Shown here: piece after piece, positions 24,374 to 32,167 of the stretch | How the letters are laid out: each line of letters opens with the position of its first letter | How positions within the stretch are numbered: the first letter of the stretch is position 1 | Origin: Candidatus Methylobacter titanis | Lineage (GTDB): Bacteria > Pseudomonadota > Gammaproteobacteria > Methylococcales > Methylomonadaceae | NCBI GenBank assembly: GCA_029946125.1 | Contig: JAQSDX010000039.1 | Span: forward strand, 1 to 34,814 | Direction: 5' to 3' | DNA: 34,814 nt | The notes under the pieces: generated by a model | Seen by the model: only the letters and a program-made list of their open reading frames with translations | Databases searched by the model: none | What the model was told of the DNA's origin: nothing | Translations under genes and position numbers: made by a program

Positions 24374-25118
24374 TTGACATCCTCCCCAGCTAAAGCAAAG
24401 AGATTCCTAGTTGCCTAAGAGTGAGTAGGTATCGCTACTGCTCACTGGTTTCTGCTGCTGACGGCATTGTTGCACCGTTCACTTCACAGACTAGCCCCGT
24501 CAGCCCGACGGTTGTTTCCCTGCTAAAAGCGCATGGCCTTTAGCCAATACATTCATTGCGCCAACCAGGTCGGCGTTCTCGCTGAATCCGCATTCCACAC
24601 AAACAAATTCAGCTTGTGTCAGTCGGTTTTCTTTAGCGACATGAAGGCAACTTGGACAAATTTGACTGGGCTGGCCTTTTTTCTTGAATACAGGCATGCG
24701 CTTTAATGGCTGGTTTTTGTCAAACGCATCCTTAAAAGCCGTCTCCAAATCTTTAAGTTTTTGTTGTATGGCTTGAGAGGGGAGTTCTTTTAAGAAACTG
24801 TATTCATCGGATTGTTTCCACAGCGTTGCCCAAAAGTTAAGCTCCTGATACCACATCAACGGCTCTTTATGCTCAAGACGATCAAGATTTAACGCCAGTG
24901 CTTTATTCCAGACAAAGCGACTTCCACCAGCAAAGTTAGCTAATTGCCGGCTAACTTGTGGCGTCACTTTGAGCTGAAACTTAAAGGCTTTGCGTATTGT
25001 CTTTTTCATGGTGTTATCCTAGCACAAGTTGTAATTGGCCTATGCAAATCAATCAAGACATTCAACACATTTGTGTAGATACCTATACCCTGAACGGCGG
25101 GGTTTTACGCTACTCGTG
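24374..25118 (-). mobile_element. IS200/IS605-family element, internally deleted
   Basis: A tnpB remnant flanked by sequence typical of this family: the right end (about 24374-24410, CTTTGCTTTAGCTGGGGAGG on the minus strand) with hairpin potential, and a left end around 25085-25118 (CCCCGCCGTTCAGGGTAT on the minus strand). No tnpA is present. The boundaries are approximate, drawn from resemblance to family ends and not from a target-site check. It cannot move by itself but could be mobilised by a related TnpA. Confidence 0.65.
24500..25009 (-). pseudogene. tnpB: tnpB with central deletion (169 aa left)
   Basis: Residues 1-112 are the N-terminal part of TnpB (start KAFKFQLKVTP, then RFVWNKALALN and FKDAFDKNQPLKRMPVFKKKG). 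The sequence then jumps to the C-terminal zinc ribbon (Cys118, Cys121, Cys137, Cys140) and RuvC-III Asp147 in ENAD. About 200 residues holding the RuvC-I and RuvC-II catalytic acids are missing, with the frame preserved at the junction. The product cannot be an RNA-guided nuclease. TnpB is the ancestor family of Cas12, but its place beside a type I-F locus is probably chance. Confidence 0.88.
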
Positions 25119-29881: not shown

Positions 29882-30367
29882 TTACAGCAAGCTTTTCATC
29901 GCTGAAAAAGGCAGAACCAAACGATTCTTGCTGGCTGACAGCGGCTTGAAGCCAAACTTTTGATAAAAACCAGCCGCTTTTTCATCTTTGGCATCGACTA
30001 TCATGCCTAACGTGCCGATTTTTTCGGCGGCTTCTGTGGTGATGCTGAACGCATGAAAAATCAGGGCATCGCCATAACCGTGGCCTTGATAAGACAAATC
30101 GACCGCCAAACGGCCTAATAACAAAAAAGGTGCATCAGAGTAACCGCCTAATTTGGCGTTATCAGGCAGCTGATCGGTAGGCACAGAATGAGCGCAGATC
30201 GAATAATAACCGATAATCTGTTGCTGTTCCGCCAACACATAAACCCGCGTTAAACCGCGTTTCTGATCCTGATTAGCAAATTGTTGCAGATACAAATTGA
30301 GCGCAACCACTCCACAATCAAAGCTTTTTCGCTGATGTTTTTTGGGGTCTAAACGCTCAAATTTCAT
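29882..30367 (-). CDS. GNAT-family toxin (TacT/AtaT-like)
   Basis: Acetyltransferase of the toxin group that blocks translation by acetylating the amino acid on charged tRNA. The 161-aa protein has the acetyl-CoA loop QGHGYG (94-99) after LLLGRLAVD, and the likely catalytic Tyr135 in FYQKFGF. The N-terminal FDCGVVALNLYLQQFANQD is the standard signature of the DUF1778-paired toxins. Its ATG lies inside the end of the antitoxin gene (11-nt overlap), ensuring coupled synthesis. Converges on cas2-3. The specific tRNA target cannot be told from sequence. Confidence 0.92.
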   Translation of the reverse strand: MKFERLDPKKHQRKSFDCGVVALNLYLQQFANQDQKRGLTRVYVLAEQQQIIGYYSICAHSVPTDQLPDNAKLGGYSDAPFLLLGRLAVDLSYQGHGYGDALIFHAFSITTEAAEKIGTLGMIVDAKDEKAAGFYQKFGFKPLSASKNRLVLPFSAMKSLL

Positions 30368-30650
30368 TATCAGCGATTATCTTTTGATAAGTTATCGCGG
30401 CTTTTTTCATACGTTCAGTGGGTTCAGTGGGGTTATCGAGCATAGAGAAAAATAGTTGCCAATCATCGGGATTAAAGCGGGTTTTTTCATGTTCTGAAAT
30501 AATCGCCGCTGCTTTTTCCCGAATGCTTAGTCGAATAAATTTACTTCTATCCAGTTCAACATAGCTTCTGGCTTGTTCAAGTAATTGCAATGTCACCGCA
30601 TCCATGCGAATTTTCAGGACATCTTGTTGTTTGTTTGTTTCGATAGACAT
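30357..30650 (-). CDS. DUF1778 antitoxin (TacA-like, ribbon-helix-helix)
   Basis: Partner of the GNAT toxin. The frame is open to 30689, but the ATG at 30650, with GGAG upstream, gives the expected 97-aa protein. The N-terminal LKIRMDAVTLQLLEQARSYV is the ribbon-helix-helix DNA-binding part, followed by FIRLSIREKA. The C-terminal half (FNPDDWQLFFSMLDNP) is the segment that wraps the toxin in this family. The pair is expected to repress its own promoter, which has several GTGG-type half sites overlapping the -10 box. Confidence 0.92.
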   Translation of the reverse strand: MSIETNKQQDVLKIRMDAVTLQLLEQARSYVELDRSKFIRLSIREKAAAIISEHEKTRFNPDDWQLFFSMLDNPTEPTERMKKAAITYQKIIADNEI

Positions 30651-30658
30651 AAACCACT

Positions 30659-30689
30659 CCACTTTTGATAGTGGGGATATTGTACCCAC
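30659..30689 (-). promoter_or_regulatory. Toxin-antitoxin promoter and operator palindromes
   Basis: On the minus strand a -10 TACAAT (30679-30684) sits between the arms of GTGGG...CCCAC (30671-30689). A second inverted repeat, CCACT...AGTGG (30659-30674), overlaps it, and a further GTGGG occurs at 30715-30719. Repeated half-sites over a promoter are typical of ribbon-helix-helix autoregulation. The -35 is not obvious. Confidence 0.55.
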
Positions 30690-30727: not shown

Positions 30728-30808
30728 TGAATAAGCTACCTGTGCGGCAGTGAACTAAAAAATACAACATTAGTAAAACATTTCTAAGCTGCCATTTCGG
30801 CAGTAATG
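30728..30808 (-). CRISPR. Two-repeat degenerate type I-F mini-CRISPR (CreR/CreA-like RNA gene)
   Basis: Read on the minus strand: repeat 1 (30808-30781), a 25-nt spacer (30780-30756), repeat 2 (30755-30728). Against the known type I-F repeat, they match at about 22 and 23 of 28 positions. Repeat 1 keeps the Csy4 stem CTGCC-GAAAT-GGCAG and the exact 5' handle CTTAGAAA; repeat 2 keeps GTTCACTGCC and the stem (with one G-U pair) but its handle has decayed to CTTATTCA. Csy4 cleavage would give a 53-nt RNA (30788-30736). The spacer is seven nt shorter than normal. Its target is the csy1 promoter region. The promoter of the RNA is unclear; a TATAGACTAT at 30820-30811 is a candidate -10 region. Confidence 0.87.
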
Positions 30809-30828
30809 TAATAGTCTATAGAGTATTT

Positions 30829-30855
30829 TCTTAAAAACAACTTTAATTAAACAGG
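30829..30855 (-). promoter_or_regulatory. Predicted Csy-complex operator: protospacer plus CC PAM for the mini-CRISPR spacer
   Basis: On the minus strand a CC PAM (30855-30854) is followed by a 25-nt site (30853-30829). It matches the mini-CRISPR spacer at positions 1-5, 7, 9-11, 13-17, 19-21 and 25. Mismatches are 6, 8, 12, 18 and 22-24; of these 6, 12, 18 and 24 are the positions that do not pair in type I complexes. The site adjoins the -35 box of csy1 and covers the region expected to drive the mini-CRISPR. Confidence 0.82.
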
Positions 30856-30884
30856 TTGATTAAAAACATAGCTTACATTACACT
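30856..30884 (+). promoter_or_regulatory. Predicted promoter of the csy1-csy4 operon
   Basis: -35 TTGATT (30856-30861), 17-nt spacing, -10 TACACT (30879-30884). Transcription would start near 30891, giving a leader of about 26 nt before the csy1 ATG with ribosome binding site AGGA at 30907-30910. The PAM of the predicted Csy operator touches the -35 box. Confidence 0.6.
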
Positions 30885-30916
30885 CCATCTCGCCCCTTTA
30901 TAAAACAGGAAGTGCC

Positions 30917-32167
30917 ATGTTAGACCCCGCCATCGCGACATTTTTAGCCGAACGCCAAGCCACTTGGCTAAAAGACAAACTCAAACCGTGTAAAACAGAA
31001 GCTGAGCAGCAGGACGTTGAAAGTACAGCCAAGGAAAAGTTTTCGTTAGCAAACTGGCTACCTGATGCCGCCAAACGCGCCGGACAATTAGCCATGGTTA
31101 GCCACCCCGGAAAATTTACACACCCCAGCACCAAAACCAGCGCCATTATCGCCAAATGCCAACCAAAACCTGACGGTTTCTTACGCACGGGTAACGCCCA
31201 CGCTGATTTTGATGTCTTTGGAAATGCCGCCGCACTGGATGTGTATAAATTCCTGTCGTTAGAATTAACCAATGGGCAAAGCGTGTTAGCCCATCTTGAA
31301 CAAGATAGCGAAACGATTAAAGCGCAATTTACCTTACCCAATATTCTATTCACTGAATTACAACAAGACTTATTAGCCATCAAGCAAGCTTCCTGCACCG
31401 TTAAAACCTCTGAAAAAATCAAACAAGTGTATTTTCCAGTTGATGACGATTATCACCTGCTATCAATACTCACCCCGTCTGGCTTGATGTTCAAACTAAA
31501 ACAACGCATTAACGAATTCCGTTTTTCCGAAGCCGCAAAACAAGCCCGCAAAGATCGCCACGATCAAAAATACAGCGAACTAGGCTTTGACGATATTTAC
31601 GGTCTCACTGTTATCGGCTTCGGTGGCACAAAACCACAAAACATTAGCGTACTGAATAATCAAAACGGTGGTACAGCTTATTTGTTGCCATCAATGCCGC
31701 CACCGTTAAAACCGCGTGGTCTACAAATCCCCAAAAACGATTTTTTTAACAATAGTCTGTACTACAAAAACTACCAAGATAGCTTTAAATCTTTACATAA
31801 GCTCCTAGTGACTGAGCACAACAATCTCAACATCCGCGAAGGACGTGACAAATGGCTGGTCTCTATCATCGAACAAGCCTTGAATGACCAAATTATTGAA
31901 AAACTCTGGCAACTGCGTCAACTGGACACGGGTTGGTCAGCAAACACCGCATTAGAACAACATCAAAAAATCTGGCTGGATAATACTAATGCCGAACAAC
32001 GCGAAGCTGAGGATGATTGGTTGAACAAAGTCGTCGCCGATTTTGCCCGATGGATCGTTTACGCTTACATAAAAATTATAGGTAAAGAAAAAGCCATCCT
32101 GTTGGGTGACGACGAATTGAACCATATCAAACAACTGATTGCAGCCTATCAGGAGGACTTACGATGA
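30917..32167 (+). CDS. csy1: Type I-F Csy1 (Cas8f), large subunit
   Basis: Large subunit of the type I-F crRNA-guided surveillance (Csy) complex; it recognises the CC/GG PAM and contacts the crRNA 5' handle together with Csy2. The 416-aa protein has the family start (FLAERQATWLKDKLK), the motif ATFSHPGKFTHP-like stretch seen here as MVSHPGKFTHPSTK near 60-73, and FGNAAALDVYKFLSL. Length is in the usual range (about 430). First gene of the effector operon; its stop overlaps the csy2 start by four nt. Its promoter is the predicted target of the mini-CRISPR RNA. Confidence 0.96.
   Translation: MLDPAIATFLAERQATWLKDKLKPCKTEAEQQDVESTAKEKFSLANWLPDAAKRAGQLAMVSHPGKFTHPSTKTSAIIAKCQPKPDGFLRTGNAHADFDVFGNAAALDVYKFLSLELTNGQSVLAHLEQDSETIKAQFTLPNILFTELQQDLLAIKQASCTVKTSEKIKQVYFPVDDDYHLLSILTPSGLMFKLKQRINEFRFSEAAKQARKDRHDQKYSELGFDDIYGLTVIGFGGTKPQNISVLNNQNGGTAYLLPSMPPPLKPRGLQIPKNDFFNNSLYYKNYQDSFKSLHKLLVTEHNNLNIREGRDKWLVSIIEQALNDQIIEKLWQLRQLDTGWSANTALEQHQKIWLDNTNAEQREAEDDWLNKVVADFARWIVYAYIKIIGKEKAILLGDDELNHIKQLIAAYQEDLR

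What the first reader, a model, noticed from the sequence alone, without database searches (positions are those of the whole stretch)
30829..30855. Mini-CRISPR spacer targets the csy1 promoter with mismatches on the six-base flip-out rhythm
The 25-nt spacer aligns to 30853-30829 next to a correct CC PAM, directly abutting the csy1 -35 box. Eighteen of 25 positions match. Mismatches are 6, 8, 12, 18, 22, 23 and 24. In type I complexes every sixth base is flipped out, so mismatches at 6, 12, 18 and 24 cost nothing; at the pairing positions the match is 18 of 21, with all but one of the first 21 correct. Partial pairing of this kind should allow binding without efficient Cas2-3 cleavage, so the Csy complex would repress its own operon and rise again when crRNA is scarce or anti-CRISPRs block it. 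The site also covers the likely promoter region of the mini-CRISPR itself, giving possible dual feedback.
Basis: partly seen in the sequence, partly recalled or inferred. Interest (0 to 1): 0.95.

Follow-up and report, generated by a model that had tools for sequence, protein, structure and literature searches.

The report
CRISPR mini-array aimed at csy1 promoter
A tiny two-repeat CRISPR beside a type I-F CRISPR-Cas operon carries a guide that pairs, with tolerated mismatches, to that operon's own promoter, so the defence complex very probably throttles its own production; this is a known kind of self-regulation, here supported by dozens of related loci.

Summary
Observation confirmed. The mini-CRISPR (minus strand; repeats 30808-30781 and 30755-30728, 25-nt spacer between) matches 30853-30829 at 18 of 25 positions beside a CC PAM. 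It is the best of 3,845 CC-flanked sites in the window; 1 of 3,000 shuffled spacers did as well at the pairing positions.

The decisive test is comparative. Of 66 mini-like candidates in fetched loci, 54 have a CC-flanked best match nearby. Spacers change between lineages together with the promoter: a CC best match in 51 of 54 own pairings, 14 of 394 swapped. In the 54, positions 1-5 never mismatch (0 of 270), while 6, 12 and 18 match about as chance gives.

This is a type I-F member of the known CreR/regulatory mini-array class: Csy autorepression without cleavage.

Two features I did not find in print, though the main papers were not readable: targets carry A at flipped positions 6 and 12 (81 of 108 versus 252 of 808 elsewhere), and guide lengths cluster near 20 and 26 nt. 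Repression itself is untested.

The parts
30781..30808 (-). 5' repeat of the mini-CRISPR, degenerate at its start, intact CTTAGAAA end
   Evidence: Rfam CRISPR-DR4 match; repeat scan
30756..30780 (-). 25-nt regulatory spacer
   Evidence: lies between the two repeats; matches the csy1 promoter
30728..30755 (-). 3' repeat of the mini-CRISPR
   Evidence: Rfam CRISPR-DR4 match; repeat scan
30829..30853 (-). target site (protospacer-like) in the csy1 promoter region
   Evidence: 18 of 25 matches, first of 3,845 CC-flanked sites
30854..30855 (-). CC PAM
   Evidence: sequence; CC in the best match of 54 of 66 candidates elsewhere
30856..30861 (+). likely csy1 -35 box TTGATT
   Evidence: by eye and by conservation of TTGA/TTGT 0-2 nt after the GG in 39 of 54 pairs; not called by the scan
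30917..32167 (+). csy1 (cas8f), first gene of the presumed regulated operon
   Evidence: PF09611, TIGR02564
32164..33042 (+). csy2
   Evidence: PF09614, TIGR02565
33057..34103 (+). csy3 (cas7f)
   Evidence: PF09615, TIGR02566
34107..34685 (+). csy4 (cas6f), the expected processing enzyme
   Evidence: PF09618, TIGR02563
26443..29739 (+). cas2-3, the nuclease that a short R-loop should not trigger
   Evidence: TIGR02562, PF21384

Best explanation
A type I-F regulatory mini-array of the CreR kind. Its transcript is cut by Csy4 into a guide with a 25-nt spacer. The Csy complex loaded with it binds the csy1 promoter beside a CC PAM just upstream of the -35 box and blocks transcription of csy1-4. 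Pairing ends near position 21, below the R-loop length that licenses Cas2/3, so it represses without cutting. Ordinary crRNAs compete for Csy and anti-CRISPRs disable it, so either should relieve repression. Shown here: the array, target, PAM, conservation and co-variation. Inferred: transcription, processing, binding, repression and the competition logic.
For: Exact site and shuffles. In the first set, 40 of 40 distinct mini-CRISPRs have a CC-flanked best match (in L013 one of two tied) within about 1.2 kb, 38 of them antisense to csy1. Enlarged set: 54 of 66 candidates; unique best match with CC in 51 of 58, against 8 of 136 for ordinary array units. Swapped pairings 14 of 394 against own 51 of 54. 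Mismatches in the 54: positions 1-5 0 each, 6 36, 7 1, 12 32, 13 1, 18 36 of 53; 6 and 12 against the rest of 1-14, 68 of 108 against 25 of 648, Fisher 4e-47. The 14 pairs added after the first profile repeat it: positions 1-5 0 of 70, position 6 10 of 14, position 12 11 of 14 (difference). Where a gene lies between promoter and csy1 (L048) the target lies beyond it. csy1-4 and cas2-3 are complete. R-loop checkpoint in a I-F1 system (PMC7296934 passages); mismatches at every sixth position tolerated by the P. aeruginosa I-F complex in human cells (PMC7305327 passages).
Against: No transcript or binding data. Neither the csy1 nor the mini-CRISPR promoter is called by the consensus scan. The predicted fold of the 85-nt transcript is not unusual (z -1.5) and pairs the two repeats with each other rather than forming two hairpins. 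Mini-CRISPRs are not universal: a simple rule finds one in 55 of 126 csy1 loci, a count with duplicate records. L189 looks like a mini-array and has no such target.
Confidence: 0.9

Rival explanations
1. CreTA-like: the mini-CRISPR RNA is an antitoxin that keeps the neighbouring TacA/TacT-like genes repressed and so makes the cell dependent on Csy.
For: A TacA1-like antitoxin and a GNAT toxin-like gene sit directly downstream of the mini-CRISPR on the same strand. Homologues of the pair lie in L033/L113, L038/L116, L115, L011 and L127, and in L012 with only the toxin's tail aligned.
Against: None of the six best CC-flanked sites of the window is at the TacA promoter; the one strong site is at csy1. 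The toxin already has a protein antitoxin. Only 4 of the 54 distinct pairs (window, L033, L011, L038) have a homologue of the pair in the fetched DNA (flanks are short). L127 has the pair but no mini-CRISPR by my detectors.
Confidence: 0.04
2. A degenerate leftover array whose spacer once came from self DNA and is now inert.
For: The repeats are diverged, and L004 and L012 show only one recognisable repeat upstream of csy1.
Against: Positions 1-5 are unbroken in all 54 CC-flanked pairs while spacers differ between lineages, and positions 6, 12 and 18 have drifted to the level of chance. Inert remnants should lose pairing positions as fast as the others.
Confidence: 0.03
3. The similarity reflects an AT-rich promoter or a protein operator copied into the spacer, with no RNA guidance.
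For: Region and spacer are AT-rich; an imperfect palindrome lies over the target (I5). 23 of 3,000 shuffled spacers reach 18 of 25 if no PAM is asked for.
Against: The five-plus-one rhythm starts at a CC, the register of the Csy complex. Ordinary spacers and swapped pairs do not show it.
Confidence: 0.03

Closest known systems
CreR (cas-regulating RNA) mini-CRISPRs, described for types I-B, I-E and V-A (reviews PMC13131331 and PMC12737573, passages; primary paper Liu et al. 2023 recalled, not read)
   Same: Mini-CRISPR-derived guide partly complementary to the cas promoter; autorepression of Cas
   Different: Type I-F here: Csy complex, CC PAM, free positions at 6, 12 and 18
crRNA-like mini-arrays of Shmakov et al. 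2023, NAR gkad495 (seen only as a reference entry; not held; content recalled: a type I-F1 mini-array shown to act as a regulatory guide, cas8 promoters as common targets)
   Same: As far as I recall the same kind in the same subtype
   Different: This locus; the base preference and length classes, which I could not check against that paper
CreTA of Acinetobacter type I-F (PMC10097628, passages)
   Same: I-F effector, 20-nt guide portion, 17 of 20 paired with mismatches at 6, 11 and 18
   Different: Target there controls an RNA toxin gene; here csy1
Racr, phage solitary-repeat anti-CRISPR RNAs (PMC10651486, passages)
   Same: Repeat-derived RNA processed by Cas6f
   Different: Here two repeats beside cas genes, with a spacer aimed at the cas promoter

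Membership tests
CreR / cas-regulating mini-array | Two CRISPR repeats flanking one spacer, apart from an ordinary array, at the cas operon | tested here: met
CreR / cas-regulating mini-array | Spacer with partial complementarity to the cas promoter beside a fitting PAM | tested here: met
   54 of 66 candidates elsewhere have a CC-flanked best match nearby
CreR / cas-regulating mini-array | Guide and target co-vary between lineages | tested here: met
   CC best match in 51 of 54 own pairings, 14 of 394 swapped
CreR / cas-regulating mini-array | Complete cognate effector and processing enzyme | tested here: met
   csy1-4
CreR / cas-regulating mini-array | RNA expressed and processed; cas promoter repressed | not testable with these tools
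   needs RNA and reporter experiments
CreTA | Guide targets the promoter of a toxin gene | tested here: not met
   the six best CC-flanked sites of the window do not include the TacAT promoter
Ordinary immune array | Spacers of about 32 nt between near-identical repeats | tested here: not met
   25-nt spacer, diverged repeats; array-like units in fetched loci are 32 nt in 211 of 242
Racr | Solitary repeat without a spacer-repeat unit | tested here: not met
   two repeats beside cas genes
Racr | Carried by a phage or other mobile element | not tested
   prophage context of the window was not examined

The most novel reading that the evidence does not exclude
Regulatory Csy guides follow a protein-imposed grammar beyond base pairing. 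The target prefers A on the guide-like strand, that is T on the bound strand, at flipped-out positions 6 and 12 and more weakly 18, although the guide base there is free. Guide lengths fall about one or two Csy3 pitches below 32 nt (near 26 and 20, with single cases of 14-15), giving complexes too short to license Cas2/3. If so, target bases that never pair are still read, and non-cutting guides can be told from immune ones by length and register alone.
Probability: 0.5. Interest if true: 0.72.

Novelty: new member of a known kind. Interest (0 to 1): 0.52.

Why it matters
It adds a well-supported type I-F autoregulation locus in a probable methanotroph and shows the flip-out register, known from structures and mismatch assays, in natural evolution: 54 guide-target pairs act as a mismatch experiment run by selection. 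If the base preference at unpaired positions and the length classes hold, they give direct, cheap predictions for Csy binding without cleavage, help to recognise regulatory guides in genomes, and bear on the design of non-cutting guides.

Tried and rejected
Promoter or UP-element origin of the A preference. In csy1 promoters without a detected mini-CRISPR (44 of 101 had a usable TTG-type promoter) A at the equivalent positions was 34 of 88 against 205 of 660, p 0.18. At 914 other CC sites within 150-170 nt of the targets the A fraction is 0.26 at position 6 and 0.28 at 12. In 233 ordinary spacers it is 129 of 466 against 1036 of 3495, p 0.42. Results that cut the other way or stay open: in the 13 same-strand pairs whose -35 starts 1 or 2 nt after the GG, A at the PAM-anchored places is 16 of 26 and at the -35-anchored places 11 of 26, too few to decide, and in the 4 pairs with offset 1 it is only 3 of 8. 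The preference was noticed after looking at 40 pairs; the 14 pairs added later show it in 21 of 28 (difference).

Selection for mismatch at 6, 12 and 18: rejected; observed match 0.35, 0.47, 0.33 against 0.39, 0.38, 0.36 expected from column composition in the 40 pairs.

A strict 6-nt period of guide lengths: not claimed. Lengths are 15-21 in 35 pairs (18-21 in 34), 24-27 in 18 and 32 in one, none at 22-23 or 28-31, but a period of 7 fits nearly as well in a circular test (R 0.62 against 0.66). I claim only two classes about 6 nt apart. A 14-nt case (L122) comes from a looser detector.

Dropped rows: 12 of 66 mini-like candidates without CC. I judge 11 as array fragments, wrong-frame, wrong-strand or duplicate detections (L013 plus strand, L026, L045 twice, L084 twice, L092 twice, L137, L139, L143 second frame) and one, L189, as a possible true exception. 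Ties were resolved in favour of CC; with that rule ordinary array units give CC in 26 of 242, with unique best only 8 of 136. 'Mini' and 'array' were split by repeat difference (more than 4 of 28), a cut chosen by me. Fetched loci were capped per search, and named and unnamed records overlap; counts of distinct pairs remove identical spacer plus repeat only, so rows are related; in 18 clusters A at 6 and 12 is 27 of 36 against 95 of 270, p 7e-6.

Strict pattern searches in class and phylum gave few hits (7 of 369 and 4 of 398 genomes); the pattern does not match the window's own diverged repeats. The RNA fold did not give two hairpins.

Full report
What is there. The window holds type I-F cas1, cas2-3, csy1, csy2, csy3 and csy4. 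Between cas2-3 and csy1, on the minus strand, lie a TacA/TacT-like pair and a two-repeat mini-CRISPR. The contig ends 129 bases after csy4; a near-canonical repeat lies close to the end of another contig, C78:35430-35456 of 35485, so the main array is probably broken by the assembly (inference). Two genomes of the same genus handle carry csy1 on contigs whose lengths equal those of Methylobacter tundripaludum OWC-G53F and Candidatus Methylobacter oryzae records, so the host is probably a Methylobacter-like methanotroph (inference).

Check of the observation. Spacer and target are as described: 18 of 25 with mismatches 6, 8, 12, 18, 22, 23, 24, PAM CC. Of 3,000 shuffled spacers 1 reaches the observed 18 pairing positions at a CC-flanked site of 30810-30936, 6 reach 18 of 25 there, and 23 reach 18 of 25 without a PAM; in the window the site is first of 3,845 CC-flanked sites. 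In the genome one further CC-flanked site lies within 2 mismatches of the masked pattern, and the reversed control also gave one hit; I did not follow it.

Relatives. Csy1 searches hit 40 of 200 relatives, 62 of 237 family members, 371 stretches in the named collection of which the best 80 were kept, and 29 of 216, 33 of 197 and 6 of 151 genomes of three further families. Only part of the hits was fetched (at most 30 loci a search), and some named and unnamed loci are the same record. A simple detector found a mini-CRISPR within 1.2 kb upstream of csy1 in 55 of the first 126 loci, 40 distinct. For each spacer I took the best match of its first 18 bases on both strands, leaving out the mini-CRISPR. 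In 40 of 40 the best match, in L013 one of two tied, has a CC PAM; 38 lie antisense to csy1, 29 of these 38 within 54 to 83 bases of its start. With more loci there were 66 mini-like candidates; 54 have a CC-flanked best match and 12 do not (listed under Tried and rejected). Unique best matches carry CC in 51 of 58 candidates and in 8 of 136 ordinary array units of the fetched loci. When spacers are tried on another lineage's region the CC best match falls from 51 of 54 to 14 of 394. So spacer and promoter change together. The nearest relative found with a mini-CRISPR (L033/L113, Csy1 68-71% identical) has a different spacer that fits its own promoter. Two loci outside the stricter rule also fit, L115 and L122; L189 does not.

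The rhythm. Mismatches per position over 54 pairs: 1-5 none; 6 36; 7 1; 8 3; 9 3; 10 6; 11 6; 12 32; 13 1; 14 5; 15 5; of 53 pairs: 16 11, 17 13, 18 36. Positions 6 and 12 against the rest of 1-14: 68 of 108 against 25 of 648. The 14 pairs added after the first count repeat it. In the first 40 pairs the match rate at 6, 12 and 18 is near what column composition gives, so these positions look free rather than selected to mismatch. This agrees with the five-plus-one pairing of the I-F complex and tolerated mismatches at every sixth position (PMC7305327, passages). A type I-E ChIP study found position 6 matched in 45% of off-target sites, above chance (PMC5904413, passage), which the present set does not show.

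Two further regularities. First, the target has A on the guide-like strand at position 6 in 43 of 54 and at 12 in 38 of 54, together 81 of 108 against 252 of 808 at the other positions of 1-17 (Fisher 4e-18), and at 18 in 29 of 53. The guide itself shows a slight A excess there (42 of 108 against 235 of 808) and is clearly poorer in T (32 of 108 against 425 of 808). The target preference survives clustering (27 of 36 against 95 of 270) and is present in the 28 pairs whose TTGA/TTGT does not start directly at the GG or whose target is on the other strand (37 of 56 against 122 of 420), though the 4 pairs with offset 1 show only 3 of 8. It is absent from other CC sites nearby, from csy1 promoters without a detected mini-CRISPR and from ordinary spacers. 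The simplest reading is that the bound strand favours T where the base is flipped out; a promoter constraint peculiar to these loci is not excluded. Second, guide lengths are 15-21 in 35 pairs (34 of them 18-21), 24-27 in 18, and 32 in one; none at 22-23 or 28-31. At position 17 long guides mismatch in 2 of 18 and short ones in 11 of 34. About 20 and 26 are 32 minus two or one Csy3 pitch of 6 nt (inference from the known pitch).

Mechanism. The guide would be cut by Csy4, loaded into a shorter Csy complex and placed just upstream of the csy1 -35 box; TTGA or TTGT starts 0-2 nt after the PAM's GG in 39 of 54 pairs. In a I-F1 system R-loops of 26 bp or shorter do not start Cas2/3 cleavage (PMC7296934, passages), so a 25-nt guide should bind and not cut. 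In CreR systems ordinary crRNAs compete with the regulatory RNA and anti-CRISPRs relieve repression (PMC12737573, passages); CreR autorepression by partial promoter complementarity is also stated in PMC13131331 (passage). For the present locus all of this is inference: I have no expression or binding data.

Scarce ordinary crRNA should strengthen, not relieve, repression. The second feedback on the mini-CRISPR promoter is possible here (45 nt from target start to first repeat) but that distance runs from 23 to 274 nt over 51 pairs. The consensus scan calls neither promoter.

Known or new. CreR and related mini-arrays are published. I recall that a type I-F1 mini-array was shown to work as a regulatory guide (Shmakov et al. 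2023, seen only as a reference entry; not held). Ten paper searches and the passages read showed me no statement of the base preference or the length classes; this is weak, as the two main papers could not be read. I file the locus as a new member of a known kind.

Noticed in passing
window 29882-30689 (minus): TacA1-like antitoxin and GNAT toxin-like pair between cas2-3 and csy1; homologues lie in L033/L113, L038/L116, L115, L011, L127 and in part L012. Not among the best targets of the mini-CRISPR.
   Followed up: partly
L048, about 0.9 kb upstream of csy1: A 285-residue open frame, HAD-like by eye (no family search), lies between the targeted promoter and csy1; the mini-CRISPR and its target lie beyond it, at -964 and -903.
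   Followed up: partly
L072, L090, L197: The CC-flanked target lies on the strand opposite to the mini-CRISPR; position 6 of the target is A in 3 of 3.
   Followed up: no
L004 and L012: One recognisable repeat each near csy1 and no second one found, perhaps decaying mini-CRISPRs.
   Followed up: no
window 30827-30866: Imperfect palindrome over the target (I5); CAAC...GTTG also seen by eye in L011 and L012. Could be a protein operator.
   Followed up: no
window 24500-25009 (minus): A 169-aa TnpB-like open frame near cas1, matching the N-terminal part and the TNB domain of TnpB models, perhaps internally shortened.
   Followed up: no
own genome C66:7616-7638: A second CC-flanked site with 2 mismatches to the masked spacer pattern; may be chance, as the reversed control also hit once.
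   Followed up: no
54 guide-target pairs: TA dinucleotide steps in the target start at position 5 in 28 of 54 and at position 11 in 26 of 54, more than at any other position of 1-19.
   Followed up: partly
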